DNA of 64,000 bases from NCBI RefSeq assembly GCF_020085105.1, contig NC_058063.1:6606501-6670500 (forward strand). Reading direction: 5' to 3'. Below the pieces are notes generated by a model that was not told the origin of the DNA, ran no database searches, and saw only the letters and a list, made by a program, of their open reading frames with translations. The position numbers and the translations under genes are program-made. The DNA is from Siniperca chuatsi (lineage: Eukaryota; Chordata; Actinopteri; Centrarchiformes; Sinipercidae). Of the stretch, positions 2,537 through 56,000 are shown piece by piece; positions within the stretch are counted from its first letter, which is position 1, and the number at the start of each line of letters is the position of its first letter.

Positions 2537-2542
2537 TTTATT
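2537..2542 (-). terminator. Polyadenylation signal AATAAA for the cysteine-rich gene
   Basis: The minus strand reads AATAAA about 250 nt past the stop codon at 2792-2794, with a GT-rich stretch (TTTTTTGTTTGTGTAC) a few tens of bases further on. Both hexamer and downstream GT-rich tract are what a cleavage site needs. It is inferred from position; no transcript was seen. Confidence 0.5.
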
Positions 2543-2791
2543 TACAATGTCAAAGACATCTATAGCATATTACAAGGTTGATGTGTTGCATAATGTGATG
2601 TAATTCCATGTCAAGCTGTGACTGGTGCGAACCTTAAGTGATTTGATATGCTGTTTCTTATGTGAAATGACATAGTGGGCTGTAGTGGTTAACAGCATGT
2701 GATAGTGCAGTGAAGTGGTTATTAGATCGTGTGTGATGTGACATGATGCTGTGTTCAAGGTCCTTCAACTCTCTCTCATTATTCCACTCAT

Positions 2792-3663
2792 TCATGCCAG
2801 GGTGATTGGAATACCAGGATGCCTCATCGTGCAGGCTACCTGAAACCCTGGAAACAAATGAAGAGAAAAAAAAATTAAAAAATGGCGACAAATGAAACAC
2901 CTTCACTGAATATTAACACAGAAAAGAGATAATCTCACACCCACATACAAATGTCAGTTCACTCACTGTGTTGGTTTGTTTTCCAGCAGAAGCAATTTAG
3001 CAAGTTCTGCTTCTCCACATTGTTTGCAGAAAGCAGTGGGGAGCGACAACTTATTTTTCCATTGGTCAAAACTGCAATGAGAACAGAGGTGGTCATTGAA
3101 ATTCACATCATGGAAACTCCGATCATAAGCACTTTTAATGACTTTTGTCTGCTTTACTTGACAACATACTGTAGTATTGTGTACAATGGCACAAAAGTCC
3201 CCAACAAATTCTTTCAGCCAATAGGAGACCCCAATACAGTATCATAACAGCCCTGGCTCTTTTACTACATTCATGCTGACTTTCACCATTGCTAATTTTT
3301 AACCAAAATGTATGAAAGACACTCACCTCTGCACTTGCACTTGTGTCTGTGCACTTTGGACACATGTGCAGCTGTTCACAGTGGAAAAAGAGAAATAGCA
3401 AGAAATAATTTATGTGGAACAACAATACATTACCCATCAACCGCTTATAACGTTTCCCGTCAAATACAAATTCACTTGACGTGTGTATATTTTACAAGCA
3501 GAGTCAATGATTTACTCTAATGTTGGCGAGTAAATGTTAATCACAATATGCATCTATGCAGAAACAATTAAAATACAAATTTGTCTTTGTGTTTACCTGT
3601 GCTGTGGTAGAAGCTGTCAACCAGAATGATGAACAGGAGACTAACACATATGATCCTGGACAT
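2792..3663 (-). CDS. Small secreted six-cysteine protein, unknown family (four exons)
   Basis: I do not recognise this gene, but its structure is coherent. Exons are 3597-3663, 3327-3371, 2967-3071 and 2792-2847. Every junction is GT-AG, and all three introns are phase 1. The joined frame encodes 90 residues ending in TGA. Residues 1-22 are a hydrophobic signal peptide (MSRIICVSLLFIILVDSF...). The mature part is basic at its start (HVSKVHRHKCKCR). It has six cysteines, at 34, 36, 46, 64, 66 and 78, giving CxC-x9-C-x17-CxC-x11-C, enough for three disulfides. The last residues have no membrane segment or lipid-anchor signal. A TATA box lies 71 nt upstream of the start, and AATAAA lies 250 nt past the stop. 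The length and spacing of some cysteines recall chemokines, but the extra cysteines and the missing C-terminal helix argue against that. A von Willebrand C-like or microseminoprotein-like fold is another weak possibility. The function is unknown; the protein is probably an extracellular ligand or defence peptide. Confidence 0.72.
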
Positions 3664-3733
3664 GATGGCAGTGTGTTCGCTCTGTTCACGACAAAGTCTT
3701 CAAATTGTTCTACAGGAGAAGAGAAACTGACAA

Positions 3734-3740
3734 TTTTATA
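3734..3740 (-). promoter_or_regulatory. TATA box of the cysteine-rich secreted gene
   Basis: The minus strand reads GGTATAAAATTG here, a near-perfect TATA box. It sits 71 nt upstream of the ATG at 3663. Initiation about 30 nt downstream would leave a short leader of about 40 nt. Its placement supports the gene call, and it suggests a focused, regulated promoter. Confidence 0.55.
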
Positions 3741-5640: not shown

Positions 5641-6422
5641 TGCGCCCTCGAAACTTTGGCACACCTCCACTGTAAAATCCGAAGTGTCAGCACTGTCCTT
5701 TATATCAACCGCACGGTGACGTTAACATGCCGCCATGAGTCAAGACACAATACGAGGAAATCCCCAAGGCCGAGAAAACGACGAGAGGCCCCTTTAAATC
5801 GACGCTTCCTCCGTGTTGTGCCAAGAGAGAGAGAGAGGGAGAGAGAGAGCTCTGATAAACAACAACACTGTTCTCAGAAGCCGCTTTTACCGGATCCAGC
5901 TCTGTACTGTGGCATCGGTGAAGAACAGGTGAGTTCATATTTATGATATTTAACTGTATTTCTAAAGGGTTATAGGGGAAGCGATCAGTTAATGTTGATT
6001 TTAGAAGCGGGCGGGGGGGAAAAAACAGTTTATTATAGTGAGTAGACCAAACGGAAGACGCGTTATTGTACTGTTCAGCTATTGTAATGGCCAGGAAGGC
6101 ATTTGCTACACCTGTTAGTTGTAATAGAGCGGAAAACACAAGAGTCCATCGCTTGTCTCAGTATAAACAGCGGAGAAGACTCTGTGCGCACTTGCCAAAA
6201 ACTGGCCGCTCTCTGACGCATGAGAGCTATTTTTGACAAACGTATTCACTTTCTTTCACAGGCAACGAGGACTTTCTGTCTGTTCTGTCCAACATTTTGT
6301 CGTCTGTCGTTCATACATTCATTGTTGAATGCCATTGCGGAAGTGAGAAGCTTTTCGACACGACACAAAGCTTGGGCTGTAGGGACATCTAGCGGCCAAT
6401 CAGGAGAAGGCGCCTACTAGAG
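5640..6422 (+). promoter_or_regulatory. Probable promoter and 5' leader of the CAMK2N-like gene
   Basis: The stretch holds a GA-rich tract (about 5825-5850). It also has a textbook splice donor (AACAG|GTGAGT, exon end 5928) and a strong acceptor (TTTCTTTCACAG, exon start 6262). A 333-nt intron in the leader, upstream of the ATG at 6423, is therefore plausible. An in-frame TAG at 6390-6392 closes the frame upstream of that ATG. No clear TATA box was identified. Promoter location is inference. Confidence 0.4.
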
Positions 6423-8547
6423 ATGTACGGAGCTTCAGGTATCCCAGAGCTCATCCCGCCCAGCGGGCCCCCCCGGCAGCCGGGTCCGGCAGGCCAGTTC
6501 AACCCGGGACACCCCCAGGTCAACGGCGACGGCGGTGGGGCCAACCCTCAGAGACTGGGACAGAGGGCACCCAAGCTGGGCCAGATTGGTCGGTCCAAGA
6601 AAGGTGCGTGGACTGATACTTTTTAAAGCAGTCTGTTTGTTTGTTTGTTTGGGGCCCCACAAGACGCAGTGTCACTATTCTCTCACACACAGCTCACACA
6701 CTTCCTGACACAGTGACAACCAGCTACACCCATATGAACATGCCCGATAAAACATGACACACAACATTAGGTGAGAAAACCGACACAGACAGGCTGTGAA
6801 ACAATAAGTAGTACTAGGCCTATACAAATCAGTATTATCATAATGACTAAGATTAAAAGGCAAAAAACTCACTTTGAAGTCTCTTTTCATTAATATTCTA
6901 AAACTAGACACACAGTAATCTGTCGAGGGAGTTCAATCCATTCCTACATTGCTCGATATGTGACCTTGAGCCGCGTGTCTAGCACAATAGTTCTGCGTAT
7001 CAATACTTAGAGTTCAGTTTTTGTACAAAATGTATGACGTCTTTGTTAATATGATAAAAACTATTAATGGATACATTGATCTGCTTTTAATATTAAGTGG
7101 TTCCCAAACTGAGCTCATCAGAGCAAAAGGGGGGATAGAATTTGTAGAGGTTGTTTGGTTTTGTTTTGGAAATTACTCATATGGAGAAAGTGGGAATTAA
7201 AATAGCTTCTTTATAATGCATGTTCATGTAGGGGCCCTTAAGGCATATTTTTTTTAATGGGGTTGGGGGTCTGTGAACCCCTGTCCTGCCAGGAAACATT
7301 TTATACTAAAAAAACACAATAATTAGAACAAACCATGAACACCCAGATCACATAAGAATTACAGAATGCACGTAAGGTTTGTAGGGCTGCAGTGACGATC
7401 TGATTGTTCGGAGAGTAATTATACCACTTCTATAATTTAACAATAACACAGTTTGTATTACCTGCATGCTTTGCCTATCCTCAGAGAGCACGACGACACA
7501 ATTTGGTGAAATATTTGGTGAATATTATATTTTTCAAAACGTAGCTGATAGTTGCAGCCCTAAATGTTAACAAGGCGCTGCTCAATTACATTTAGTGTCA
7601 TATAAACTTAATCTGTAAATACTGCAGCCTCTGAAACAGGGATGATGATCACAAATTGCAAAATATTTATAGTTAAACATTTTGGAAAATATGCTTATTT
7701 GGATTCTTGGCGAGAGTTAGAAAAGAAGATTGATACCACTGGCACATCTGTTTAATATTTAAAGGGACAGTTCATCCCAAAATCAAAAATACATATTTCT
7801 CCTCTTACCTGAAGTGCTATTTATCCATCTAGATTCTTTTGGTGTGAGTTGCTGAGTTTTGGAGATAATGGCCGTAGAGATGTCTGCCTTCTCTCTAATA
7901 TAATGGAACTCGATGGCACTCGGCTTGGACGTAAACATTAACGGCGTCCTCCTCAGCTGAGCTGTAACGTTAGCTAGCTCAGTGGCGCCAGGTGAGCTAG
8001 CAGTATCAAACTATTAGTTAGAATATTATTGTTGCTATTTGTTATTGTCGCGTGCTTGCTTCTGCACGGTGATCCGGTCGGTGGGTGTAGTTTGACTCTA
8101 CGGCCGATATTTCCTAAACTTGGCAACTCACACCAAAACAATCTAGATGGATAAATAGCACTACAGGTCAGAGGAAAAATATGTATTTTTGATTTGGGGG
8201 TGAACTGGCCTTTTTAATATTAAAATAAAGCTAGTAGCCGGTTAGCTTAGCTTTACATAAAGACTGGAAACAAGGGGAAACAGCTAGCCTGGCTAAGCGA
8301 ATGAGCAACTTTTATAAAACTTTTTCATTAAAAAAAACAACCATCCAATTAATCTCTCTAAATGGACAAAATAGATATAAACAGCCCTATTTTAGCTGCA
8401 TTATCTGGTATTAGCATTCTTCACCTAGAGGCACACATTCCTGACTTTTTTGTCCTTTCCTCCTCAGTGGACTTGGAAGATGAAGACTTGGATGACATCA
8501 TGAACAACAACGGGCAGTGTCCTGTATCCCTGTCGCCCATCTCCTAA
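6423..8547 (+). CDS. CaMKII inhibitor (CAMK2N)-like protein, divergent, two exons
   Basis: CAMK2N proteins are small cytosolic inhibitors that bind the active CaMKII catalytic domain. Coding exons are 6423-6603 and 8468-8547, joined in phase 1 (G|TG) at a GTGCGT donor and a TTTCCTCCTCAG acceptor, giving 86 residues. Residues 49-60 (APKLGQIGRSKK) match the family's inhibitory core, followed by an acidic VDLEDEDLDDIM where known members have VVIEDDRIDDVL. The ends differ from known CAMK2N1/2. The N-terminal half is rich in proline and glycine (MYGASGIPELIPPSG...), and the C-terminus is NNNGQCPVSLSPIS rather than a PPGV ending. The ATG at 6423 is the first after an in-frame TAG at 6390 and has G at -3. 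The 3' UTR may end near AATAAA signals at 9572 or 10101. It is likely a separate fish paralogue; the exact orthology is unresolved. Confidence 0.85.
7676..8310. mobile_element. Second copy of the fold-back family, interrupted by another element
   Basis: The left part (TTTTGGAAAATATGC..., GAGTTAGAAAAGAAGATTGATACCA) and the right part (AGCTAGTAGCCGGTTAGCTT...) belong to the same family as the 2.05-2.46 kb copy. They are split by the nested element at 7760-8212. The copy sits inside the single coding-region intron of the CAMK2N-like gene. Confidence 0.65.
7760..8212. mobile_element. Nested terminal-inverted-repeat element with target duplication
   Basis: The ends are long inverted repeats. The left begins AAAGGGACAGTTCATCCC and runs to ATCCATCTAGATTCTTTTGG; the right carries the reverse complements and ends GGGTGAACTGGCC. 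TTTAATATT is present on both sides (7751-7759 and 8213-8221), consistent with an 8-9 bp target-site duplication of hAT type. There is no transposase frame, so it is non-autonomous. Confidence 0.7.
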
Positions 8548-14800: not shown

Positions 14801-17760
14801 CTTTTTGGACTAGGGATCAAACCTCCTCCTACCTACTGTATGATGTACGATCTAAGCAAAAATGTGATGATATGGTAAGTTTGGGTGGGTTTTGATGAAA
14901 TATGTAACCGGGTTGTATTGATTATCATAGGTCCCATAGACAATAATATAGATTGGCACAGGTCCAATACGGTGGCTATGGCTATGAACAATCATTTAGT
15001 CACCACCCTTTTCTCATGTATTGTATCATATTACCATTTCAACTGATCGTATGTAAATTGTTTGCAATTTTACTTGTTATATGTTTTAGCCACACCAGTG
15101 GTGTGCTTCTACGGATGGCAATCTGTCAGTCGGTCGACCACTTTGGTCCAGACTACAGATATCCATGGTGCTCAGACTATGAATCCTACTGACTTTGGTG
15201 ATCCCCTGACATTTAGCGCCACGAGCAGGTCAAAGTTCTCACTTTTTCTAAATATTTCTAAACATTTCCTAAATATCCTAAGTATCCTCAAGAATTTGAT
15301 GAACCCCCCTAGTATCTCTAGTGCCACCATTAAGTTCACATTTGTGCTTTTGAGTGACTTTTTTGGTAATACTTTGCTTTAAGTCGCCCAATTTAGCATT
15401 TATAAGCAATATAAAAACATTTACACATTAAAACATTTAAACACATTGTAATGCTGTAGTTCACAGCTAAGTGTTTATTAATGTACAGTATATGTCAGTA
15501 ATTATACTTATGAAGACATTTTATATTATTACAACTTTGTTTTACTATATTGTCATACATTATCTGTTTATATAGCAGCCTCCACTTATGGGTGCCCACG
15601 GGAGGTGTTACAGTTGTTAATAAATACATTATTTAAATACATTAATAAAGACTTATGTCTGCTTAAAACAACATTATTAAATGTTTATATACTGCTTATA
15701 AATGATAAATAGGGGGACATCAAATAAAGTGTTACCACTTTCGACAACTACTGGATGGACTGCCATTAAATTTGGTACAGATGTTGATCGGCATGAATTG
15801 GAATCACTTTGGTGATCCCTTAACATCCATATCGCGCCATCATCAGAATCACTTTGGTTTATGACCAATTACCTGCAAACGTTACTTTGTGTTTAGTGCT
15901 AATTACAGTAGCAAATGTTAACATGCTAACACTCTAAGATGGAGAACATGGTAAAGATTATACATGCTTAACATCAGCATGTTAGCATTGTCACTGTGAG
16001 CATGTTAGCATGCTGACATTAGCATTAAGCTCAAATTAAGCCTCACAGCTGGCGTGGATGTATATTCTTGTTTAAAAGCTGGCAGTGTTTCCTAAATTTT
16101 AAATGTTGTGAAAGCCATTGAAAAGCCCTGTTTTTCACTATAATGAACTGTTATGCATCATAAAATATACTTTAGGTCAATTAAAACCACAAATAACCTT
16201 ACAAACATACAGGCGGTGACAAATTAAAGGAGCATAATGAATGCAGATGCTTCAGTACAGGGTTAGGGTTCACTGAATGGTTTGATGAAAATCACCTGAT
16301 GCAGATGCTATGGCCTTTGCAGTCACCTGGTCTCAACCCAGTTGAAAACCTGGAGATTTTGGAGCGACTAAGGAAATATATTTCAGAAGAATGCTGCCAT
16401 TGCTCCAGTGGAGTTCCACACACAGAAGCTGTTCTTGCAGCTTGTGGTGGAACAACACCTTTATGTTGGTTTTCCCTTTAATTTGTCATCCATCTGCATC
16501 GAATCAAATTTCAGTCACACGAATTGTCATCAGCAATGTAGTTGTCTCATACAGCAATGAACCCCGCAGGTTTTTGAAAATTAAATGAAATACATTATGG
16601 TCTAATTACAATTAACATGCATCAGAAATGTAAGTGAAGATGCAGTTATGAGCACTGTTGTCATGTTGTGTGATCAGTCACAGTGTGTTTTACCTAATGC
16701 TCGGTTGTTAATATAAGAATAAATGGCTTATTTTTCATAGTTTCTTAAATGCTAACTTTTTGGGAATACACGTTCACATCTGCCATCAAGCAATTGTTGA
16801 CCACTGTGGAATAAGCAAGTGCTTTATCCAAACTACACCCTTCAGGTGAATCAGTGAAATTTATAAAGGAGCATTTGCATCCTTACCTCCCACTAGTAGG
16901 ATGATGCCTCCTGTCATGGCGATGCAGGACTTGCGTAGTTTCTCACTCCCTCCACAGGTGGTACACTTCATTCCCATACAGGCCACTCCCAGACCTGCGA
17001 TGGACACAATGATGCCAACTATCATCAAGGCACGAGTTGCCTGAAGTGAACCTGGGACAGACAGAGAGAAGGAAAAAAATGATGTAGTATGAGAACAGTA
17101 CAGGATAAGTATGTTGTTTTCGTTAGGGGAGGCAGTGAAATAGATGGCCTTTTGTGTTGTGGAATGTGGGACTGTAGTTTAAAAAGGTTAAAAAATACAG
17201 CACTGTGCAAAAACACAAAGAGCCTATAAAGCCAAGTAATCAATCCTGTATGCAAAGTGCAAATCTGGAAGCACAGACTGGGAAATGATAAGGAAAGACT
17301 AATAAACAGGCCTCGCCCTATAAGAGAGGCTTTATGTGTGTGTCCAGAAGTTGTGAATTATATTCACATTAGCCTGTCAGGACATTTTAATGTGAGCTTT
17401 TCCTGGAAAAGAAACCATGGGATACAGATGAACACACACCAGCACACACAAACAGAAAGAAAAATCCATCTCACACTCTTTCTTTTTCACTGTCTCCCTC
17501 CCTTGCTGTTTGAGAGGTGGATGCCTGCTGAAACACTACTGTTAGGATCCTCATCTGTCAGTGCCCCCCCCCCCCCATCTCACCCTATAAACCTATCACA
17601 GGGTGAGCCCCCCCTTTGTCTCTTCCCCTCTGTCCACCTAGAACCAGTCTGTGCCAGTCTAGGCCATCCCTGCCCTGCCCAAACAAACAAAACCCTCCAT
17701 CAGCGAGGGAGGGACTGAGGGATGGGTAGAGAGAGACAGAGGGGAAGAGGATGCAGAGAG

Positions 17761-17796
<36 letters not shown>

Positions 17797-19102
17797 GGGG
17801 GTAACTCTAAAAACAGTGAGACATAGGAAACAATAGGGTGGATTATATAGTAAATGCAGACAGCGAGCAGGATGCACAGTATCCTGGCTTGGAGTTAGAT
17901 CACACTGTTCTCATTATTGTTACTGAGCCGCCTCTGGCAGCTTTACAGTTGCTCCACAATATATATATTTTTTTTAAATAAGGGCCTTTTACTAGACAGT
18001 TAGACAACACAGATACTAATGCAAGACAGATCCTGTTTGAGGCCATTATTTTTTTCAGCTAATATTGTGCTTCAGTGATGTTATTGTAATTCTGACTCCT
18101 TCCAAAACAAATTTGAATATAATCAGATTTATGGCGGTGAAACAGAGAACAGCATTGTGTCGATGAAGTTGTCAGTCACTCAGATACACTTGGGATACAC
18201 TGGGTAGACAAGGTTGTGTCTTTTATCACTGGGGCTATATTTTTGACAAAGGCACGGCCGTAGAGACGAAAGATACAACTCATCTATGCTTACGCAAATG
18301 ACTGTCTTTCTTGAAGATGTCCCTCATCCGAGAGGCTTCATCATGGATCACGGAATTAGCTCTTGAAACTTGGATGAGGCATCATACTGTATCTAGGTTA
18401 GGTGTGTTGAGTGCTTGGGAAATGTTTGGAGATGGGTTGGGAGGGTTTCCCAGAATGTAACAACTTGTGGGTGAGGTTTCTGAGGAATGCTCCTTTCAAA
18501 CTTTTTTTTTTCTCCTGGACTCGGCCACTGTCGTTGTACAAGCAAGCCTTATGAAGAAGACAATGTCCCACTATAGTGACCGATTACAGTGGACCTGTAA
18601 TTGCTGATAGTAGAGTGTTAGAAAATGTGGTGTGATGAGCAGGTATACCCTGAGGAGGCAAACTTAATCAGTGATAACACTGTGGCCCACTGAGGTCTCC
18701 CTGTTGGTGGGTGTCCAGGTGGAGAAGCTCAAGTCATGAATAAGAGACTGTGTGAAGATCAGCCTGCTACATCACCTGAACTTCAGTTAGCTGTCAGCTG
18801 CTGGAGATTAAAAACCAGTTTTAGCAGTGATGATTGACATTTCAGTACTTAGGAACCCCAGTCACAGTGGACTACTTACTGTCGAGTTGCAGAATGGAGT
18901 CGTAGATTTTACACTGGAGCTGTCCGGTACTTTGGAAAGCGCACGACATCCACAGCCCCTGGTACATGGCCACCGCTGTGATGATGTTGTCCCCGATGTA
19001 TGCTGACATCTTCCACTGCGGCAGAATAGTCCCGATGATCAGCCCAACGATGCCAATTAGCGACAGGAAAAATCCTAACAGCTGAATACCGGAGTTGGCC
19101 AT
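11890..19102 (-). CDS. cldn7: Claudin-7-like tight-junction protein (four exons)
   Basis: Claudins are four-pass membrane proteins that form tight-junction strands and set paracellular permeability. Coding exons are 18880-19102, 16887-17051, 14461-14545 and 11890-12058, all GT-AG with matching phases, giving 213 residues (human claudin-7 has 211). TM1 is about 8-28. The first extracellular loop carries the family signature W30...GLW51-x2-C54-x9-C64. TM2 is about 83-103, TM3 about 118-138 and TM4 about 161-184. The tail ends KEYV, the PDZ-binding motif of claudin-7 (claudin-1 ends KDYV). The start [11 protein letters not shown] matches the family. An in-frame upstream ATG at 19189 would add 29 residues, but it is not conserved in claudins, so I chose 19102. 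Proximity to beta-1 receptor genes parallels human 17p13.1 and supports claudin-7 over claudin-1. Whether this is the a or b fish copy is undecided. Confidence 0.9.
12283..12620. mobile_element. Short MITE with TAAAGYGAYACTATGT-type ends
   Basis: The left end reads TTAAAGCGATACTATGTAA. The right end reads AATAGTGTCACTTTAA, its approximate reverse complement. The interior (GCTAACATTAGCCTCCATAGG...) resembles the stretch at 47.25-47.57 kb, so the two are relatives. It is noncoding and lies in claudin intron 3. Confidence 0.6.
12776..13045. repeat. Dispersed fish repeat in claudin intron 3
   Basis: It contains CTTATTTATATAGCC, CCTCGATTCGGATGAGGAAG, CCTTTTAACGGGGAAAAAA and GACAGACATGCAATAGATG, a string I know from many teleost genomes as interspersed repeat DNA. 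It has no coding capacity. The class (SINE or MITE) is not certain. Confidence 0.55.
13353..14422. mobile_element. Long fold-back element, about 1.07 kb
   Basis: The left end TTAAAGGAATCGTTTGACAT is mirrored on the right by ATGTCAAATTATTCCTTTAA. Internal arms share GATGCGAAGATC-type and CTAGCAGCCAGTTAGC-type motifs with the 2.05 kb copy. The centre (about 13.66-14.1 kb) is unrelated to the shorter copies. It includes ACGTTACGTACG and CACGTGTTTAATG motifs, so it may hold a second insertion. Confidence 0.65.
15110..16060. repeat. Two partial copies of the GCTAACATGCTAAC-type dispersed repeat
   Basis: The first part (about 15110-15330) has TTTGGTCCAGACTACAGATA and GACTTTGGTGATCCCCTGAC. The second (about 15735-16050) has AATCACTTTGGTGATCCCTT and TTAACATGCTAACACTCTAA. 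The same motifs recur near 32.5-33.7, 38.4-38.8 and 56.1-56.4 kb. It is noncoding, in claudin intron 2. Confidence 0.6.
16205..16500 (+). pseudogene. Tc1/mariner-like transposase remnant
   Basis: A plus-strand frame reads [19 protein letters not shown], which matches the WPxQSPDLNPIENLW block before the last catalytic acidic residue of Tc1-type transposases. It is followed by a decayed tail (VLAACGGTT...). Only about 80 codons are recognisable, and the frame shifts, so it is dead. The copy sits in claudin intron 2. Confidence 0.6.
17764..17794. repeat. (TG)n microsatellite followed by a G run
   Basis: About 15 TG units end in GGGGGGG. It lies in claudin intron 1, inside a GA-rich, low-complexity stretch. 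Confidence 0.85.
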
Positions 19103-19209
19103 CGTTTTCAAAAAGTCTCCTTCTCTAAATGATCTTAAATGAGTGGTGTCGGTGGATCCTGAGTCCCTCTCCTCCTCTGCAGACTGCAAAGCTTCTGATA
19201 TGTCTGTTA

Positions 19210-22200
19210 AGATCTGTTACTTGTCTTTAAGTGATGCAGAAAGCCGCTGGTAGTGTCCGTGTCGCTCCTGAGTTGTGCACCGGGGGTCTTCAGTCGGGGA
19301 TGGGCATCCGAGATGTGGGTGATGGTGTGAAGTGGGTGTGTAATTATCATGCCAGCTGATGCATGGAGATGTAATTCTCTGTGGGAGTAGCTGCTGGGAA
19401 ATGCCCCCTCTGCTTCCAGCAAAGCAACAGGTTGTCTCTCCGTTCACCACTTTTCTTTATCAGTTTCTATCCTTTTCATCTGTGTCAGCGGCTCCATTAT
19501 AACACACTCATGTTGAGCAGCCAAACACAACTTCTTTTTAAATTCTCATCAAATGTATACCTACTACTGTAGAGATGGCAGGCTACATTTAGGGGCTTTT
19601 AACACATTTTGTTTGGGGGAAATTGTATTTGCATATGGCATGCTGAATATACATTTTCAATATAATGGTAAAGACATAGAAAACATGGCATCATGGTAAT
19701 ATAAGCATCATGCGTAAGGATGTGTTTGGAAAAAGAAAATACAGACTTTAATATGATAATACAGTTTAGAACAAAATGTTTTTAAGTTATAAAGCCATGG
19801 GAATTAAGGAGAAATTTTGAGTTGACAAGGTTTGAAGAGTATTCCTTTCTTATCAAACAAAGAAAGCTAACAATAGTGAATGTGTTGTATGGGTGTTGCT
19901 CCATCATCATTTATGTATTTCACTCTAAATATTCTTTATTTATATTTTTCCACTTCTACTTTAGTCTAGAAAGGGTGTGTGTGTGTGCATACAGTTTACA
20001 CAGTTAATAGTCCACAGTCTACACTGACCCAGATTGATGCTGTAACTCAGGTCCCTGTCGACCGTCCTTTTACCACAGATCACCAATCACTGGCTCAGAG
20101 CAGATTCATGATCCTCTCTGTTGTTAGTGATGCGGCAATGAGGTGCAACTGCCGAGTGGAAAAATGAAATGCTGGAAACACGTCAAGTCGAGTGCAAGTA
20201 GCAGTTTCAGATATGTTCAGAAACCGGAGGAGCTGGAAGAAGACTGAACTACCATATGACTCAAATGACTGGTTATGAGACAGTCACATATTGTCTTTTA
20301 CAGAAAACTTGAACAGTGTGAGCTTACATGGGGCCCTTAAATTAGAGGTCAAACCAGTGCAGTTATTTGACTCTTGCACTTGGAGAAGATGGCACTGTGA
20401 CTGCATTGCCTCATTCACTTGCCTTATAGTATGTTTCTGCTTCAGTGATATGTGGGGCTGTTAGTTTTGTCAGTTATTTGTTCAAAAATGTTGACAAAAT
20501 GTTCATTTTAAAAGAGGAACTTTTGTTGTGTCTTGCATTTATTACAAAAGTATTAGTATTACAAAAAAAAAAAAAAATACCAGAAGCAGAGTAGGATGTA
20601 CAAACTGTCCAACCTTCCTGCTTTGGTGACCTGATGGACTTTGATGAATGATTTATCACTGCCAGAGAGGCTGTCATCTGTGCCATCGCGGGTATGGAGA
20701 CCACAGAGTGCATCCAGCCAGACTCACCTTCATTTCAGCACCTCAGAGGGGCTGGAAGAGGGAGTCCTGGCGGAGACTGAGGCTTCACCACAAGTCTTTC
20801 TGAATGAAAAGATGGTTTCTGACAAGACCACTATGGTAGCTGTTTTCACATTATGGCACAATGGGTGTTGTTAGAAGGAAACATAAAACCAGCGTACTGG
20901 GAATACAGTTTTACATGCTCACATTCGCTTAAAATCCGTTGTGCTGACACATCTTCAGTCAGATTGGAGAACGGTGTGGTTCTGACCTCATCCAATGAGC
21001 TGGAAGAGCTACAGGAGAAATGAGGAAGCCCTGGTTAAGGACTCTGACTGCAAGGGGAAGAGGGAGAAAAAGAAGAAGAAGAAGAAAAAAAGGAAGTGTC
21101 AAAGAAATAATGTAATAGTATGTTTAAGAAAAGTGTGAGAAAATAATTACTCATGCCTTGTAAGTTTATCAAAAACAATGAAAACAAGTGAAAGTCAATG
21201 CAAATAGACAAACAACATCAGATCATGCTGACTGACTGGTGCCCGGGCGTAAGTCACCGCATGCTGCAGTAGAGTTGAGGCTGTGCAGGCCACCAGCTTA
21301 CTTTACAAGTTTAAGTCCAGTTACACCTAAATAAGATTTCACAAAATGTAATGAATACAGTAGGGGAAATCAAGTTGCACACCATCATATATAGTTTCTT
21401 TTTACCAATATATCAGTTCCATTAGGTCCATTAACATGCCAGTTGTAGCCCCTTTCCTGCAGTGAATGGACAAAAACCAACAGACAATAGCAGGCATTGT
21501 CCATATCAGAGGTTCAGCAGTGTGTGTGACTTCACACTGAGGCTTAACAATAGTCCTACAGCAATGGGAGAGGAAGTAATAACCCATAAGCCTGAAGGAA
21601 GTCATCCCCACTGCCTAGTTAAGGGGAATGTGCTCACCTACTGGCTGGATTACCAATTTAAAATGTAATGAGGCTTTGCTAGATCGGGCTCGCAGGTCTG
21701 TTACTCCTCTTTTCTTCTTCCACCAATCTTTTGCCTTGAACTGTTCTTTCATATTCTCACATTCTTGCCTCCCCCCCCACACACACCTTCACCCACCTCT
21801 TCTCTCACTATAACTCTTTTTCCCCATACTGTACCCAGGCTTGGATAATAGGCCTCGAGTCCTAGTTGTTGATGCCAACAAATGCCTCATTGTTGCTGGG
21901 GAGGAATGACCCCATAGCTCGAGCTATCTGTTTCACTTTGATACAGAGGTTGGTGAGGAACAGGAACGGATGGAGGGTTGAAAGAGTTGTTAGGATCAAG
22001 GTGAGAAGGGACAGATAAAGGAAAGGTGATAAGGAACAACATATGAAGGTTAGAAAGGTGTGCACAAAGCGCTGGGTGAGCTGTAGAAGAGGAAGATGAA
22101 GAAAAGCAGGGGCCAGTCTCAGGCCTACCAGTGCTGTTGCCACTGGTAACCTGATTTATCTGATGTCCTCTTGGCTGCTTTTTCCACCCAGGTCCTGGAT

Positions 22201-26147: not shown

Positions 26148-26304
26148 CTATGGGAAAGGGTTGTCAGGTGTGTAGTTGAAACTTGCATCCAAGAACATGG
26201 CCAGGGTGCCCAGGGTGGTGATGATGACAAACAGCCACAAGAAGAGACGGTCCACCACCAGGGCGATGAACTGCCAGTCTCCTGTCATCTGGAGGGAACA
26301 CACA

Positions 26305-34430: not shown

Positions 34431-37400
34431 CAAGCTTCAACAAAAATTTCTTAGATTTGTTAGATTTGTATCTTTTCTGTTGTTGTAGGAAATAATGTTA
34501 ACTATTTCCATAAATTGCACTACTTTATATTCATTGCACTACTGTTCTGCCCAGTCCAATTCATTATTGTATATGTCCATCAGTGTACTTCTGTTTATAG
34601 TAATGCCATCTGTATATAATGTCCATAGTACCACTTGTTAAATATTTTCATAATACTGCTCTATCCTGCATTTATGCACACACTTTATGTCCTGCACTTG
34701 CTTATTGCACTTCTGGTTAGACCTAAACTGCATTTCGTTGCCTTGTACTTGTACATGTGTGATGACAATAAAGTTGAATCTAATCTAATCTAATCTAAAT
34801 CTAGCCTGTCGCTGGATATTCATACTGTTAGCAGTTGGCATAAACGAAAGAGAAAAATCTCTTTGCCAACATTAAATTGACTAATTCTCAGTATTTTGTG
34901 GTTTATTAAGCAGATTTTATTTTCTTTGCACTAAAGAAATGATAAACAAGTGTGACAAATTTATTACAATGCTCATAACAAGACAGATGAAAATGCACAT
35001 TTTTAATACATCTTTGTCTGCGTATCAACTTTGTGCATCCTGTAGCCTTTCTGTTAGTGTGATGGCCTTTAATCAGACTTGGTGTTGGAAGTCTTATAGG
35101 TTTGACTAGGTCATATTTATGGAAAAGTGACCTGGACGCTTCAGATATGCTGATCTGCTTCTCTTGAAAGAACTAAAAGTCAGCAGTGTAATTACGTAAT
35201 AGTAATCAGTATACAGACAAACATATAGGAGATTGGTGTTAAAACTATTGAAGAATCTACACTATATCGATGATTATTGCTTTAGATTACGGCCTGCAAC
35301 ATACCAGCATACCCGGTAGTTAAAAATACTTAAAAAATAAGTTATCTTTAAATTCCTCCCAAAAGCCAGATTGTTGTTCAGTAGGTCATACTGTGTACCA
35401 TAATATTAGAATAGGTACCTGTTAGTAAAAAACAAACTTATAGTATAAATTATTTTTAAGTTCCCAGATTGTTACCCCCTAATCCCCTAACTTCACGTCT
35501 TGTTCCCTTGTACCTAAATGTATCAGTGCATACTGTACTGATACACTGTTATTAAACTGTAAATTGGGAAGAATTACACTGTACGTTGCAGGCCATAATC
35601 TAAAGTGTTACCGTAATTTTTGAAATACCAAAATCAGTTCAAAATCACAAACTGCCAGTTCACTGCTTTTACAATGTCATTTTTCATTTCGATCAATTGA
35701 GGCAGTATGAATTGTTACGCTGATGGAGTCATGCCTCTGGTAGATTCCTTGTTAGTAAATGTGGCCTTACCTGCCTCTCCAGGGTATGACGAGATCAGGG
35801 TTGATCTTGCGAAAGAAGTACTCTCCTCCAGGCTGCCTGCCATTGAAGCTTCGGGAGGGCGTGTCATCACTAGACCCCTCCTTTAACAGAGGCTCCTCTG
35901 GGTTTGGCCTCGTCATGCCGATGTACTTGGGCAAGAAGTGAATGAATACCTGTAAATATGAGGTGAAGAAATCAGTGAAATCAGGGTTCTCGAAGGTATT
36001 GGAAGAGCCTAGATGGATGCTCAGTGAATTTGGATAAATGTTAAACCTGGCCTCACCTTTCGAACCCAGTTTGGCATGATGTGTGTGCTTGGCGTTCTGT
36101 GGTGCAGATTGAGGACAACCACACTTAGGATGACAGAGAACGTGACCAGGATCATGGTGAACATGACGTAGTTGACAATAATTGGGATGCCGAGAGAAGT
36201 CTCAGGGACCTTGTCAGCCAGCAAAAGCATGAAGACAGTCAGAGCGATGAGGACAGAAATGGAGAGAGTCATCTTCTCTCCTGCAGATAACAGGGACAGT
36301 TTGGAGAATTAATTATGACAGAGAAGCAACAAATATTACTCTGCTGACTTTCATGTTGACAAGGGCAAACTTTAAGACATGATTACCTTTGACTGCAATA
36401 TTTGTTGTGGATAAACATGCAACCGATGAATTGGCTTTATCTTTTAAAATGTTGGACAGCGGCATGTCTGCAAGTGCAGAGCTTACTGGTCCGTTGTAGG
36501 TAAAGAAGACAGTTGCCTGATTTAGCACTGTCTCACGGATTTACGTAAATTGAGTTTGTGCTCCAAAAATTCAGCATGCTCAGACTGTAACTGCAATCAA
36601 TCCTGCTGCTTTCTGTTGAATCTATATTTTCCGCTATGTCAATGAAAAATCACTCACTATAATATATCGTAAATTCCTTCAAAGGTTTCCCTGCCTCATG
36701 AAGTTGTCTGTATTAGAAACATACTTCTTGTCATGACATTAGACATTGTATCAAAGTCTCCCTTCCTATTCCTATATCACGTCTTGGCAGTGATGTGTAG
36801 TCACACAATGTCACAACATGTCAGATGTGCTGACCTGCTCCAGGAGGCAGGTAGAAGACAAATATAGCCAACACGCTGGTGAGGATGCAGGGCACGATGA
36901 TGTTGATGATGTAGAAAAGAGGCTTCCTTTGTATGATGAGGTAGAAGGTGATGTCCTCATACAGGTCCTCCTTTACGTTCTTTCTTGAGGGTTTGTGACA
37001 GATGGCCCATTCTCCGTTTTCTGTGGAGAAAGAGACGTGCAAGGCAGAAGATATTGAGAAATTGGTGATGTCTACTCCTTCAGTAATATAGTCCAATTTC
37101 AAATGATCAGCAAGCAGGTTCGCTGTTTAGATAAATCTCCTTGAATAAAATGCAGAATAGAGATTTTCTTTGTTTGACATCGCTTTTTGCCCTGGAGCAT
37201 TTGTGAGTGTTTTGAAAAATGTAACATATATATAATATGCTTATTATTCTTATACATCTTGTACATTAATATGGTAAAATTAATTAAAAACACCAGGTGG
37301 CTAAAGTTTGGCTAAAGAAGAAGATTTAAAAAGCCATAGGTTCTGAATGAGGTACCAACCAGTGAAAGCGTTCTCATCTATAACAATCTCGTGAATCTCT

Positions 37401-40400
37401 TTGCCCTCATCATCCAGAAAGTACTGCAGGTCCACCTCAGAGGCGTCATAGGTGTACGAGCGGAAAACCATGCTGCAGTTCTGCCAGTCAAATGGGAAGT
37501 ACGACACCTGTAAGAGTGGAAATTAAAGAACTGCTACATCACTTTTCAAAGGGAAAGGGAATATTCACAAATATGAAATTCTGGATGAAGATCCACGAAA
37601 AAAGAAAGTAAAACACTAGGGTATTGCATGTTTAATATTAGTACAATCAAGCCATACATTGTCCTTCCTATCTTTACACACAACACAGTTGATCCAAATG
37701 GCTTTTTAGCACACATAGAGAAAAAACAGAGCAAAAGAAAGGAGACAAACACAAGAGAATAAACACCACATAGAGACACATCAGTTATTAAGGGATTTAC
37801 ATTTTTAGTTGTCAGTGTGCCAGTGGTATGTGATCCTAAAGGACAGTACCTCTATAGAGCAGGAGCTGCGGTAGATGGCTGGGGGAAGCCAGTTGACTGT
37901 CCCATCACTGTAAACCAAGACGTTGACGTACAGAGCCACGTCAAACTGACCGTCATTACTGTATGGAGGAAATAGAAAGACAAATGTGATGTTCATATTT
38001 CAGACATTTTAGTATACCACAACATTTCACATGTCCTTCTACATCCTGTACCCTGTAAATACGAGACGACGGCTGGTTCAGGAAGAGTGACGTTCTCTCC
38101 TTAGTATGCAGATTATATGTAAATCATGCCCTCTTTGCCCCCTCCCCTCAGACCCTCCACACCAAAGCGGTGACAGAAAGTTGAAACATAATAATAATAA
38201 AATTATTTTTAATGTCTGTGTATTATTTTTCTGTGAAACTTTTTTCAGTGCCAACACAACTTTTTCCAGTACAAATGTTTCAATGCAAATGTTTCCTTGT
38301 TCAGTTCCGGGTTTTGTTTTCGATGCCAAATTTTAAAGTCACTGTCCTGGCTCCATATGCTAGAGGCTCAGTGAGGCTGTACTAGGTACAGTGGCGCTTT
38401 GAGCTAAATGCTAATGTCAACTTGCTAACATGCTCACATTGACAATGCTAACATGCTCATATTTAGTAGATGTACCATGTTCACCATCTTAGTTTATTTT
38501 TTTTTAGCATGCTAACATTTGCTAATTAGCACTAAACACAATGTACAGCTGAGGCTGACGGGAATGTTATTAGGTTTGCGGGTACTTGGTCATAAACCAA
38601 AGTATTGGACAAAATTAAAATTTTGACCTGATGATTATATTTCATCCTGAGGGGGACAAGAATGTCTGAACCAATTGCATGGCATTCTGCCAACAGCTGT
38701 TGAGGTATTTCAGTCTTGAATTATGTCACTTGACTAACATCGCCATCCCTAGAGCCACTCCCCATTCATGTGTTTTTGCATTGTTTTAGCATACTTTTTA
38801 AAATTTTAAAGTGAAACATGTTTTGTTGCGTTTCATAGGATCTATCAGCTTTGCCTTTGGAGCAAATCCTCTGTTAGTTAGATGATACGGATGACTGTGT
38901 GACTGCAGATAGGACACTCACTTGTTTATGAGGTAGATGTCAGGACGCCACACCTTGTTGGGAGGAATCCTCAAAACATTAATGTCGTCATATTCCTCCG
39001 GGTTCCATGACAACCTGTAGTCCGTCCATGCCTGGGAAGGAAGGCAGCAAGGAACGGAGGAAGAGCAAGTAAAAAGAAAGTGAATAACAAGCATAGCGGA
39101 GCAGACATTACCACGGTGCCCTGATGTCTCTGTCATTTACATCCTAGTTTCTCCGGTCTTTGATAAGTAATTTAAATACCACTGATCTAGACACACACTC
39201 ACACACCACTGTCACAACCACTCAATTCTAATTAGCGACGGCGAGGGACAGAAATGAAAGAGTGAGTAAGGGAATAAGAGAGATAAAGCAAGAAATTATT
39301 TGCGCTTATAAAAAGTGACAAGTCCATTTGAGGGCCGAGCGACAGAGCAGCAGCGAGAGAGGAGATAGGAGTCGGAGCGGCAGAGCGAGGCTCAGTGATG
39401 AAGATGAATGTTTTCATGCTCATACCAGATTCATGAACACGTTGGTTGTCATCTCTTCATTCTTCTCGTTCTGTAGCAGGATAGAGGGACACAGAGACAG
39501 AGAAAGAGAGAGGAGACATGCATTAGTGACTCCACCATATCTTGTTGTGTATGACAGTGCTGTTACTTTCAATCCTGCTGTATGGAAACTAATTGGGTAT
39601 GGATGAATGGATGACAGTGTAGCACCCAGCAGTGATCTGGCCAATGGTGTGTGTGTGTGTGTATATTCATATATAAAGGACTCAAATAATTCACAAGGTT
39701 GTATTTGCATGTATGTGCATGTCACCTCTATGTTGCATGTGTGTGTTTGTATTTACCAAGCTGACAAGCTGAGAGAGGGTCATCCCCACTCGAACCATCA
39801 CCTTCTCCTCCCAGTAATGAGCTGGTCTGACTTTCATGTTGTAATTGTTAAACAGCTTCTGATGGAGCCTCCGCTCTGTTTCTGAGGCTCCTGGATGAAA
39901 CGATGGATGCAAAGAGACAGAAAATGATGAGGGGGAAAATGATAACTAACGAACCAAGAGCCGCTACTACCTGAAAAAAGAAATGAATAGCAGTGAATGG
40001 CGATATGGATGAAAAATGAAGAGCAACAAAGAAATAGGAAAAAAAATGATAAAAGTAAAGAAAGAAGGGGGGATATTTTTTATCCAGTGAAAGTGCTTTG
40101 ACAAAATTATTACTGGCTTGAGAATAAACCTTACTGAATGTGTGAAACTGGTCTTTTCACATGTGAAATATTACATTTCACATTATGTCACATGTTAAAT
40201 GCATGAAAACCAGATGGGGATTTTCCTCACATGTGAAATGTCCGAAATCCACATGAGTACATGTGGCATTAACGTCTTTGATGTAAAATATGTGAAAATC
40301 ACATGTGCATTTATGATGGGAAGTTTTCACATGTGAAATGGTGTTCCACATGTTATAAACAAGCTTAATTCACATGCTTTTTTGCAAGATATCCTAATTT

Positions 40401-53000: not shown

Positions 53001-56000
53001 TCCACTTTCAGTCAATAGCTTGTTGGCTCTCCCAGACCTCCGAAATCCATCGTCTTTCATGGGAATAAAAAATCAATTTTGTTTGGATTTCCTGTTTCAT
53101 AATTTATGGGAGAGTTTAAATGTACTTGCTCTGTATTTGCCTATTAAGGCTGAGAAATGAGACAAAATGTTGAATTTAGCAGTGAGATAACCTTTGAGAA
53201 CAGTTGCTGCTAAATGATGTGGGTGGGGGAACCAAATGGGTAATGCTTCCAATTCCTCAACGTCTACTCTCAAGGTGTCCTTGAGCAAAGAACATAAACG
53301 CTAATTCTCCAGTGGAGCTCTTAAAGCTATGGTAGGTAGTGTATTTCAGAAGCACTTTTTATTAGATTTGTTGAAATTCACTTTACATCCTAACAGCAAT
53401 CAGTAAATCAAATGCTCTGGGGAAAAAAAGAAATCCGGTATCTGTGGCTGTCACAGGCCTTTAATTAACGCTGCGTTCCATTTGAACTGGGAAGTCCGAG
53501 TTCCCAGTCGGAAATTTCAACTGGAACGCCCCCCTGAAGTTGGATTCCGACTCGGAAAGTTGGAAGAACCTCACCACCCCCGACCTCAAAATCCAAAACT
53601 GTTAGTGAAAGCTGAAGTGATATACTGTTTATTAGCACTTCTGTCTTTTGTGGCTTATTAAATCAGTCGTACACACAGTACTGTGTGTGTTATTAAAACA
53701 GAAATACATGTTTGATAAAACCTGAGAAAAATGAAGTAAATCTTTTTATATAACCATCACTTGGTACTCATTGGCTGTCAGACTTGGAGCTGCCTTTCAA
53801 AAGAATACCAGAGGAATTTGTCTTGAAGATAAAACAGCAAATCGCTGGGCCAAATGTTAGTCTTGATCAATATCATAAATGCTGTTTGCCTCTGTAAATG
53901 GCTCTTTTATCAGCACTTTGAAGTGCTTGGATATAATTCTTTTGAAATTACTATTGGCTTCCCTGTATTGACAGATGGCGGTCAATAATAGCCTGGCAAG
54001 GATCATACTGTACTGTAGCTACAAAGCAGAATGTAACTTAAGGTGAAGCAGCTTGTTTGTATTGTAGTTTCAAAGAAAAAAGGGTGACTTCATTCAGAAT
54101 CAAATATGTCCATGTTCTTATGTGACCACCTCTGGTATTTCTTTCTATTCTATTCTCCCCTGTTTCCCAGTACACTACAACATCTGTCATGTTTCCCGTA
54201 GACTGTTCTCTCTGTGTGGGACAGTAGATCAGTAAGTCACACACAGTGACATGACTATGGCAACAAAAAGCAGTCAAAGTGGCCAAACAGCGGGAGCTCT
54301 AAGACACGTTGTTGAAGCAGTGCGTGTGGGTCAGATTTACTAAGAAAATGGCGTTGCGCAAACGTGCACTGCGGTTTTCATTGAGTTTGTGGACGCATTC
54401 TGTGTGTGTTCAGCGCCTGATATACTAAAACAGTGGCGCCTTACGCAGTCAGCTCCTGGACTGAACCTGGAACTGAACCTCCGGACGCACTCTGCCAGTG
54501 AAGAAGAGCTCATGCAGTAAGTGCAGTTCAGAGGTGGGATTTCTGCGTTTTATAACATATTGATCTTGATTTACAAAATATTTCCTTGATACACAAGGTA
54601 GGCCTACATGGCACCAGAGGGAGGGAGGGAGGGAGAGAGAGAGGGAAAGACGGAGCAGGTGGAGGTGGAGATGTTGTTGATATTGATGTTGAGATAAATG
54701 CAGCCAAACGCACTTAGTTTAGTTGTAGTCTGTAGTGATTTTACGGTTCCCTGATCATCAAATCAGTTCAAATTCAAGTTTGATGAAATCAAACCACAAC
54801 ATCCTTCCACTATTCATTTGACTACAGTAATCAGATATTATGTTAATTAATAATAGCCTAATTGCTTTTGTTTTTAGTTATACACAAGCCTATATTCAAT
54901 ATATGTTTATTTCCGCCACTACAACCTTCCTTTTCAGAGTGGAGAATTTTCCCCACATATTTTTTTGTCGCGTATAGCGTGACCTCATTAAATCCAATGG
55001 AATACATTATCATCCTTTGTTAACATGTATCATCCTATTATTTGTGCGATCCTCCCTTATACGCATATGCAATGAGGAGAGAGGTGCAGCCACTGTACAC
55101 TAAGCTGAACGAGGGAGGCCGAGGACTAGTGAGTGTCGGAACCACTGTCCAGGATGAAACAACAAAGATCCAGGAGTACATCAGGAAGATGGCCCCCAAT
55201 GATGAACGGCTAAGCGAATACCTCAGGCAGCAGAAACCCGAGGATGATGAGGAGGAGGAGGATGAACCATCATGGAGAGACAAGCCCCTGCACGGCATGT
55301 ACCACTGACAGATAGAAGAAGTGGCTGATATCAAGAAATCCTACCAGTGGCTGGAAAAGGCTAGACTAAAGGACAGCACAGAAGCACTAATCATGGCAGC
55401 AAAAGAACAGGCACTCAGTACAAAATCAATAGAGGCTCCCAGTGTACCACACCAGACAGGACCCCAGGTGCAGACTGTGCAAAGATGCCCCTGAGACAGT
55501 TCAGGACATAACAGCAGGGTCTAAGATGCAGGCAGGAACAGCGTACATGGAACGCCATAACCAGGTGGCTGGCATAGTGCACAGGAACATCTGCCATGAG
55601 TATGGGCTGGAAGTCCCAAGGTCAAAATGGAAGACACCTCCTAAGGTAGCTGAGAATGACCGAGCTAAGATCCTGGTGAGGGCTAACCAACCAGACATCG
55701 TGATGATCGACAAACAGCAGAAGAAGGCAGTGGTGACAGATGTAGCAATCCCAAGCGACAGCAACATCAAGAAGGAACACGAGAAGCTCGAAAAATACCA
55801 AGGGCTGAAAGAGGAGCTAGAAAAGATGTGGAGAGTAAAAGCAACAGTGGTGCCAGTGGCAATCGGAGCACTGGGGGCTGTAACCCCCAAACTGGGAGAG
55901 TGGCTCCAGCAGATTCCAGGTACAACATCTGAAGTCTCTGTCCAGAAGAGTGTAGTCCTAGGAACAGCTGAGATACTGCGCAGAACCCTCAAACTCCCAG

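What the first reader, a model, noticed from the sequence alone, without database searches (positions are those of the whole stretch)
2537..3740. A compact gene for an unplaced six-cysteine secreted protein
Four small exons with consistent phase-1 junctions and GT-AG sites join to a 90-residue frame. It starts with a signal peptide and has cysteines at 34, 36, 46, 64, 66 and 78 (CxC-x9-C-x17-CxC-x11-C). A TATA box 71 nt upstream and AATAAA 250 nt downstream complete the unit. I cannot match the cysteine pattern to chemokines, defensins, Ly6 proteins or microseminoproteins. It could be a fish-specific cytokine-like or defence peptide.
Basis: partly seen in the sequence, partly recalled or inferred. 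Interest (0 to 1): 0.8.

Follow-up and report, generated by a model that had tools for sequence, protein, structure and literature searches.

The report
Fish CXCL17-like chemokine with capped tail

Summary
In detail: on the minus strand, four GT-AG exons with phase-1 introns encode 90 residues, a signal peptide followed by CxC-x9-C-x17-CxC-x11-C. It can be placed. Zebrafish CXCL17-like, an experimentally shown GPR25 agonist, also has four exons, Cys at 36, 38, 48, 66, 68, 86 (CxC-x9-C-x17-CxC) and lies near ponzr genes, ugt5g1 and cldn7a (PMC12905490). Here PLAC8 (ponzr-type) exons begin 3.7 kb away, a UGT lies beyond them and a claudin 13 kb on the other side. It is most likely the cxcl17-like orthologue of this unnamed fish.

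New: (1) the agonist tripeptide, here IPI, sits where zebrafish has its terminal LPL, but TLA follows, so the motif is not terminal. (2) The same genome holds a cxcl17 gene (ending TPI) at a cnfn-pafah1b3-ceacam-type locus, and an open GPR25 frame. The two ligand genes share three phase-1 introns, intron 2 straight after CxC-[KR], and CFC in exon 3. This suggests common origin, although their residue similarity is no better than chance. No transcripts and no other fish were examined.

The parts
3735..3740 (-). TATA box (TATAAA)
   Evidence: pattern scan, starts at 3740, 71 nt before the ATG
3597..3663 (-). coding exon 1: ATG, hydrophobic leader (residues 1-22, plus the first base of codon 23)
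   Evidence: donor GTAAAC, phase 1; A at -3 of the ATG
3327..3371 (-). coding exon 2: basic stretch and first CxC (C34, C36); intron 2 follows CxC-R directly
   Evidence: acceptor CAG, donor GTGAGT, phase 1
2967..3071 (-). coding exon 3: C46 and the second CxC (C64-F-C66)
   Evidence: acceptor CAG, donor GTGAGT, phase 1
2792..2847 (-). coding exon 4: C78, tail TMRHPGIPITLA, stop
   Evidence: acceptor CAG; no alternative phase-1 last exon ending in [LIMVT]P[LIMV] among 233 candidates
2804..2812 (-). I85-P86-I87: tripeptide at +7 to +9 after the last Cys, the place of the terminal LPL in zebrafish CXCL17-like
   Evidence: zebrafish positions from PMC12905490
2795..2803 (-). T88-L89-A90: three-residue extension that makes the motif non-terminal
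2537..2542 (-). AATAAA polyadenylation signal
16864..19216 (-). claudin gene (two exons recognised at 18875-19216 and 16864-17178), cldn7-like: conserved neighbour
   Evidence: PF00822 E 3.3e-13 and 1.6e-10, joined piece E 7.7e-26; the name cldn7 rests on position and recalled sequence; the best PDB match is claudin-19

Best explanation
The gene is the cxcl17-like orthologue of this teleost. It encodes a small basic secreted protein, presumably held by three disulfides as modelled for zebrafish (by analogy C34-C64, C36-C46, C66-C78), that acts as a chemoattractant through GPR25: the basic body binds glycosaminoglycans and holds a gradient, and the C-terminal aliphatic-Pro-aliphatic tripeptide enters the receptor pocket. 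In this species the tripeptide (IPI) is followed by TLA. The reading I think most likely is that the peptide still belongs to the GPR25 axis, but that its full activity needs removal of TLA or a pocket that tolerates it. Shown here: the gene model, the locus, the cysteine spacing, the position of the motif, and the presence of a cxcl17 gene and an open GPR25 frame in the same genome. Inferred: secretion, disulfides, receptor binding, chemotaxis, and any trimming of the tail.
For: Exact CxC-x9-C-x17-CxC spacing, four exons, pI 10.1 against 10.0. Same neighbours: PLAC8 exons from 3.7 kb away, a UGT (PF00201, E 1.4e-154), a claudin. IPI at +7 to +9 after the last Cys, the only aliphatic-Pro-aliphatic in the protein. 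Zebrafish CXCL17-like activates zebrafish GPR25 (EC50 about 20 nM), and loss of its last three residues nearly abolishes this. GPR25 candidate: 374-aa frame at C2:20251708, 48% identity, E 1.7e-64, next best 36%, with a Lys (K275) close to the K274 reported to hold the ligand's carboxylate.
Against: The C-terminal motif is not terminal, and in zebrafish the last three residues decide activity. C5-C6 spacing is x11, not x17. I never saw the zebrafish CXCL17-like sequence itself (figures and supplements not held), so no residue-by-residue identity was computed. No transcript data. Pfam, NCBIfam and PDB give no match. The GPR25 query was human sequence typed from recall.
Confidence: 0.6

Rival explanations
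1. It is the cxcl17-like orthologue but has left the GPR25 axis: the TLA extension blocks the pocket, and the protein now works without it, for instance by binding glycosaminoglycans, through another receptor or as an antimicrobial, while cxcl17 on C9 (ending TPI) serves GPR25.
For: Motif non-terminal; no alternative last exon that restores a terminal motif among 233 candidates in about 5.5 kb; a second ligand gene with a terminal Pro-Ile exists in the genome; human CXCL17 is said to act on MAS-related receptors independently of its C-terminus.
Against: The IPI is intact and exactly placed, which suggests selection on it; the frame, splice sites and six cysteines are intact.
Confidence: 0.3
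2. It is an unrelated fish secreted peptide that resembles CXCL17-like by chance.
For: No residue-level comparison with the zebrafish protein was possible; no sequence similarity beyond chance to the cxcl17 of the same genome.
Against: Exact spacing over five cysteines, exon number, motif position and three kinds of shared neighbour together.
Confidence: 0.04
3. The four-exon model is an artefact of picking splice sites, and no such protein is made.
For: No RNA evidence at hand.
Against: 0 of 200 shuffles give the cysteine pattern; conserved locus; complete TATA-to-AATAAA unit.
Confidence: 0.03

Closest known systems
Zebrafish CXCL17-like (si:dkey-112a7.5, chromosome 7; PMC12905490)
   Same: Four exons; signal peptide; CxC-x9-C-x17-CxC-C; basic (pI 10.1 against 10.0); aliphatic-Pro-aliphatic at +7 to +9 after the last Cys; neighbours of the PLAC8/ponzr, UGT and claudin families.
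   Different: 90 instead of 95 aa; x11 instead of x17 between the last two cysteines; IPI followed by TLA instead of a terminal LPL.
Fish CXCL17 (zebrafish zgc:158701; in this genome C9:10642067-10643013)
   Same: Four exons; in this genome also three phase-1 introns, intron 2 directly after CxC-[KR], CFC in exon 3, exon 4 opening with V-[SA]-C; a PLAC8-type neighbour.
   Different: Cysteine order CXC-CXC-C-C instead of CXC-C-CXC-C; terminal TPI; residue similarity to the window protein no better than chance.
Mammalian CXCL17 (acts on GPR25)
   Same: Small basic secreted protein with six cysteines and an Xaa-Pro-Yaa motif near the C-terminus (per PMC12905490).
   Different: Other cysteine order; no overall sequence similarity is reported even for the zebrafish proteins; no Pfam match.
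Canonical CXC chemokines
   Same: A CxC motif near the mature N-terminus and a chemoattractant role (for CXCL17).
   Different: Six instead of four cysteines and another spacing; CXCL17 stays apart from canonical chemokines in cluster analysis (PMC10792014, passages).

Membership tests
Fish CXCL17-like | Signal peptide and a short mature peptide (under 200 aa) | tested here: met
   hydrophobic leader, 90 aa in all; judged by hydropathy, no signal-peptide predictor was run
Fish CXCL17-like | Six cysteines in the order CXC-C-CXC-C | tested here: met
   C34, 36, 46, 64, 66, 78; first four spacings identical to zebrafish, last one x11 against x17
Fish CXCL17-like | Locus near ponzr, ugt5 and cldn7a; four exons | tested here: met
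   PLAC8, UDPGT and claudin families found; four exons; finer names (ponzr, ugt5, cldn7) not proven
Fish CXCL17-like | Sequence alignment to zebrafish CXCL17-like | not testable with these tools
CXCL17 family (functional criterion) | Xaa-Pro-Yaa as the last three residues | tested here: not met
   IPI is at 85-87 and the protein ends TLA; no alternative last exon found
CXCL17 family (functional criterion) | Activates GPR25 | not testable with these tools
   only the presence of a GPR25 frame was tested
CXCL17 family | Match to a curated Pfam model | tested here: not met
   0 families at E up to 10 for this protein and for the C9 cxcl17; the paper says zebrafish CXCL17s cannot be found by BLAST with mammalian ones either
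Canonical CXC chemokine | Chemokine domain with four cysteines | tested here: not met
   no Pfam match; six cysteines

The most novel reading that the evidence does not exclude
In this fish lineage CXCL17-like is a pro-chemokine: IPI is capped by TLA, and extracellular carboxypeptidases remove the cap and stop by themselves at IPI because a penultimate proline resists them, so that GPR25 agonism is switched on at the site of proteolysis. [quoted passage not shown]
Probability: 0.2. Interest if true: 0.65.

Novelty: new variant of a known kind. Interest (0 to 1): 0.42.

Why it matters
Fish CXCL17s were reported only in January 2026, found in zebrafish by a strict C-terminal motif filter. The window gene fails that filter although its locus and cysteines fit, so the filter would miss orthologues of this kind. 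It gives a natural test of whether GPR25 needs a free Pro-Xaa carboxylate. The shared gene structure and PLAC8 neighbours give a testable case for a common origin of the two ligands.

Tried and rejected
Family searches gave nothing: Pfam, NCBIfam (a prokaryote-oriented library) and PDB (one match at E = 1, a fatty-acid-binding protein, taken as chance; none). Searches used a mis-spliced 91-residue version with one extra Gly; searches used the right 90 residues.

Residue similarity between the window protein and the C9 cxcl17: local score 29, reached by 347 of 1000 shuffles and by 679 of 1000 cysteine-fixed shuffles. This speaks against claiming homology from sequence; the case for common origin rests on gene structure and neighbours only.

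An 80-kb stretch around a PLAC8 gene on C14 lies in a histone cluster and showed no CXCL17 candidate to the eye. The hormone-sensitive lipase loci (C9:10.40 Mb, C17:7.48 Mb) were used only to pick out one of 150 listed GDSL matches, the one at C9:10639655, which led to the cnfn-pafah1b3-ceacam-type locus. L008 was fetched and not examined.

The C9 cxcl17 was found by eye; the control (any matching three-exon chain in 1 of 300 shuffles, both strands, against 4 nested variants in the real + strand) used limits set after the gene had been seen. The junction pattern search was built from the two genes themselves, so its single match is no evidence.

A GTATGT 18 nt beyond the exon-3 donor would add six codons but contains an in-frame TGA (sequence), so it cannot supply the zebrafish x17 spacing. 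An acceptor 8 nt further into exon 4 leads to a long cysteine-free frame and was set aside.

Not done: structure prediction and fold search were not called, because a single 67-residue orphan without an alignment would give a weak model. dN/dS was not possible without relatives.

Full report
Check of the observation. The unit is real and lies on the minus strand. Four coding exons (3663-3597, 3371-3327, 3071-2967, 2847-2792) with GT-AG introns, all phase 1, give a 90-residue protein with cysteines at 34, 36, 46, 64, 66 and 78 and one more, C6, in the leader. TATAAA starts at 3740 and AATAAA at 2542. In 200 dinucleotide shuffles of the 1401-nt region no pair of AG...GT exons gave CxC-x9-C-x17-CxC; the real region does, at the proposed exons. 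In the 719-Mb genome that holds the window (C22:6606501-6670500) all 3 matches to the protein are exons 1 to 3 of this gene.

What it is. Family libraries are silent: 0 Pfam families at E up to 10, 0 NCBIfam families, 0 PDB chains. The cysteine pattern and four exons recalled CXCL17, and a literature search led to PMC12905490. Of that paper I read the abstract and outline, the section on identification, the first of two parts of the discussion with methods, passages, the introduction and part of the reference list; not its figures or supplements. It describes zebrafish CXCL17-like: four exons, 95 aa, cysteines 36, 38, 48, 66, 68 and 86, pI 10.0, last residues L93-P94-L95, on chromosome 7 near ponzr3-6, ugt5g1 and cldn7a. 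The window protein has the same spacing CxC-x9-C-x17-CxC, then x11 instead of x17, and a mature pI of 10.1.

The locus agrees. Left of the window lie PLAC8-family exons between C22:6591528 and 6605323 (6 of the 12 matches; joined pieces pass the Pfam cut-off with 40.3 and 50.0 bits), the nearest 3,714 nt from the gene. Beyond them is a 548-aa open frame of UDP-glucuronosyltransferase type at C22:6583977-6585620 (PF00201, E 1.4e-154). On the other side, 13 kb away in the window, is a claudin. The finer names ponzr, ugt5 and cldn7 rest on position and on recalled sequences; the best PDB match of the claudin piece is claudin-19. Conserved neighbours plus identical cysteine spacing make the gene the cxcl17-like orthologue. 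I could not align the two proteins, since the zebrafish sequence was not at hand.

The tail. In zebrafish the three last residues carry the activity: without them binding and activation are nearly lost, and modelling puts the terminal carboxylate against K274 of GPR25. Here the only aliphatic-Pro-aliphatic tripeptide, IPI, lies at +7 to +9 after the last cysteine, the exact place of LPL, but TLA follows before the stop. The codon after IPI is ACC, which is more than one base away from any stop codon, so a single sequencing error does not explain it. Among 233 phase-1 last-exon candidates (frames of 5 to 60 residues) in 2,966 nt of window and 2,500 nt to its left, none ends in [LIMVT]P[LIMV]. 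By the published criterion the protein therefore fails the C-terminal test while passing those of locus and cysteines.

The partner genes. Following a GDSL-family match on C9 (one of 150 listed) I read 40 kb and found, in order, a PLAC8-like frame (10625581-10626093; E 0.0017, 19.7 bits, below the cut-off of 34.4), a leucine-rich-repeat frame, a GDSL exon of pafah1b3 type (10639511-10639909; E 9.2e-5, below the cut-off) and Ig domains on the minus strand from 10644208. Between the last two lies a four-exon gene (10642067-10642130, 10642427-10642507, 10642655-10642729, 10642910-10643013), 107 aa, with cysteines CXC-x11-CXC-x16-C-x17-C, ending in S-T-P-I. This is the order cnfn, pafah1b3, cxcl17, ceacam1 described for zebrafish cxcl17; the names are by position and recall. 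It is single in the genome: 4 of 5 matches are its exons and the fifth has E = 2.2. A search with most of human GPR25, typed from recall, gave one clear best match of 137 scored (48% identity, E 1.7e-64, C2:20251708-20252574) with an open frame of 374 aa from its first Met. The next two look to me like apelin receptors (36 and 37%). The candidate has K275 in the context WLPFNIFK, near the published K274; whether its W98 or W108 corresponds to the published W104 is not settled.

Shared origin of the two ligands. In this genome both genes have three phase-1 introns; intron 1 splits an Ala codon in both; intron 2 follows CxC-[KR] by one base in both; CFC lies in exon 3 of both; exon 4 opens with V-[SA]-C in both. 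Both lie near a PLAC8-type gene, 3.7 and 16.0 kb away. The two searches show 10 PLAC8 loci, weak ones included, and reading adds the C9 one; with 11 loci in 719 Mb a random gene would lie within 16 kb of one with a chance of about 5 in 10,000 (my estimate). Against this, the residues align no better than shuffled ones (347 of 1000). [quoted passage not shown] I think a common origin is more likely than not, but it is not proven.

How it most likely works. Secretion, three disulfides, binding to glycosaminoglycans by the basic body and insertion of the C-terminal tripeptide into GPR25, as published for zebrafish. The open point is TLA. Either GPR25 here tolerates it, or exopeptidases remove it (a penultimate proline is known, from general knowledge, to resist carboxypeptidase A, so trimming would stop at IPI), or the gene has left the GPR25 axis, leaving that task to cxcl17. 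These three are separable by one binding assay.

In print. Searches for 'CXCL17-like' and 'dkey-112a7.5' list one paper, PMC12905490; 'zgc 158701' and variants list none (that gene name does occur in PMC12905490, so this spelling was not caught). CXCL17 with GPR25 since 2023 lists 8 papers, of which I read passages of PMC10792014; it had called CXCL17 mammal-specific. Subscription papers and preprints are not held, so earlier reports cannot be excluded.

Verdict. Ordinary in the sense that it belongs to a described fish chemokine group; unusual in its capped agonist motif.

Noticed in passing
window 36024-38000, 60416-63511 (minus strand): Exons of nicotinic-type ligand-gated channel subunits (PF02931, PF02932 in 3 of 10 frames scanned); further frames at 26151, 38921, 46101 and 63209 look alike by eye.
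   Followed up: partly
window 57354-57848 (+): C1q-domain frame (PF00386, E 4.3e-12).
   Followed up: no
window 55024-56008 (+): Frames that look like pieces of a retrotransposon; no Pfam match for the one scanned (55433-56008).
   Followed up: no
window 6393-6623 (+): Frame with an ATG at 6423 downstream of a GC-richer stretch, perhaps the first exon of a gene on the plus strand; no Pfam match.
   Followed up: partly
L006:302-1528 (+), L006:2613-4114 (-): Rhodopsin-family GPCR frames on C22 beyond the UGT (PF00001).
   Followed up: no
C9:10628466-10631420 (L034): A 985-residue open frame with leucine-rich repeats, Toll-like by eye, between the PLAC8-like and GDSL genes of the cxcl17 locus.
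   Followed up: no
C9, between exons 1 and 2 of cxcl17 (L035): A possible extra short exon that keeps the phase (seen by eye in the sequence); the paper mentions alternative splicing of some fish CXCL17s.
   Followed up: no
Neither the PLAC8 profile search nor the PLAC8 protein search listed the C9 PLAC8-like frame, so PLAC8 counts in this genome are lower bounds.
   Followed up: no
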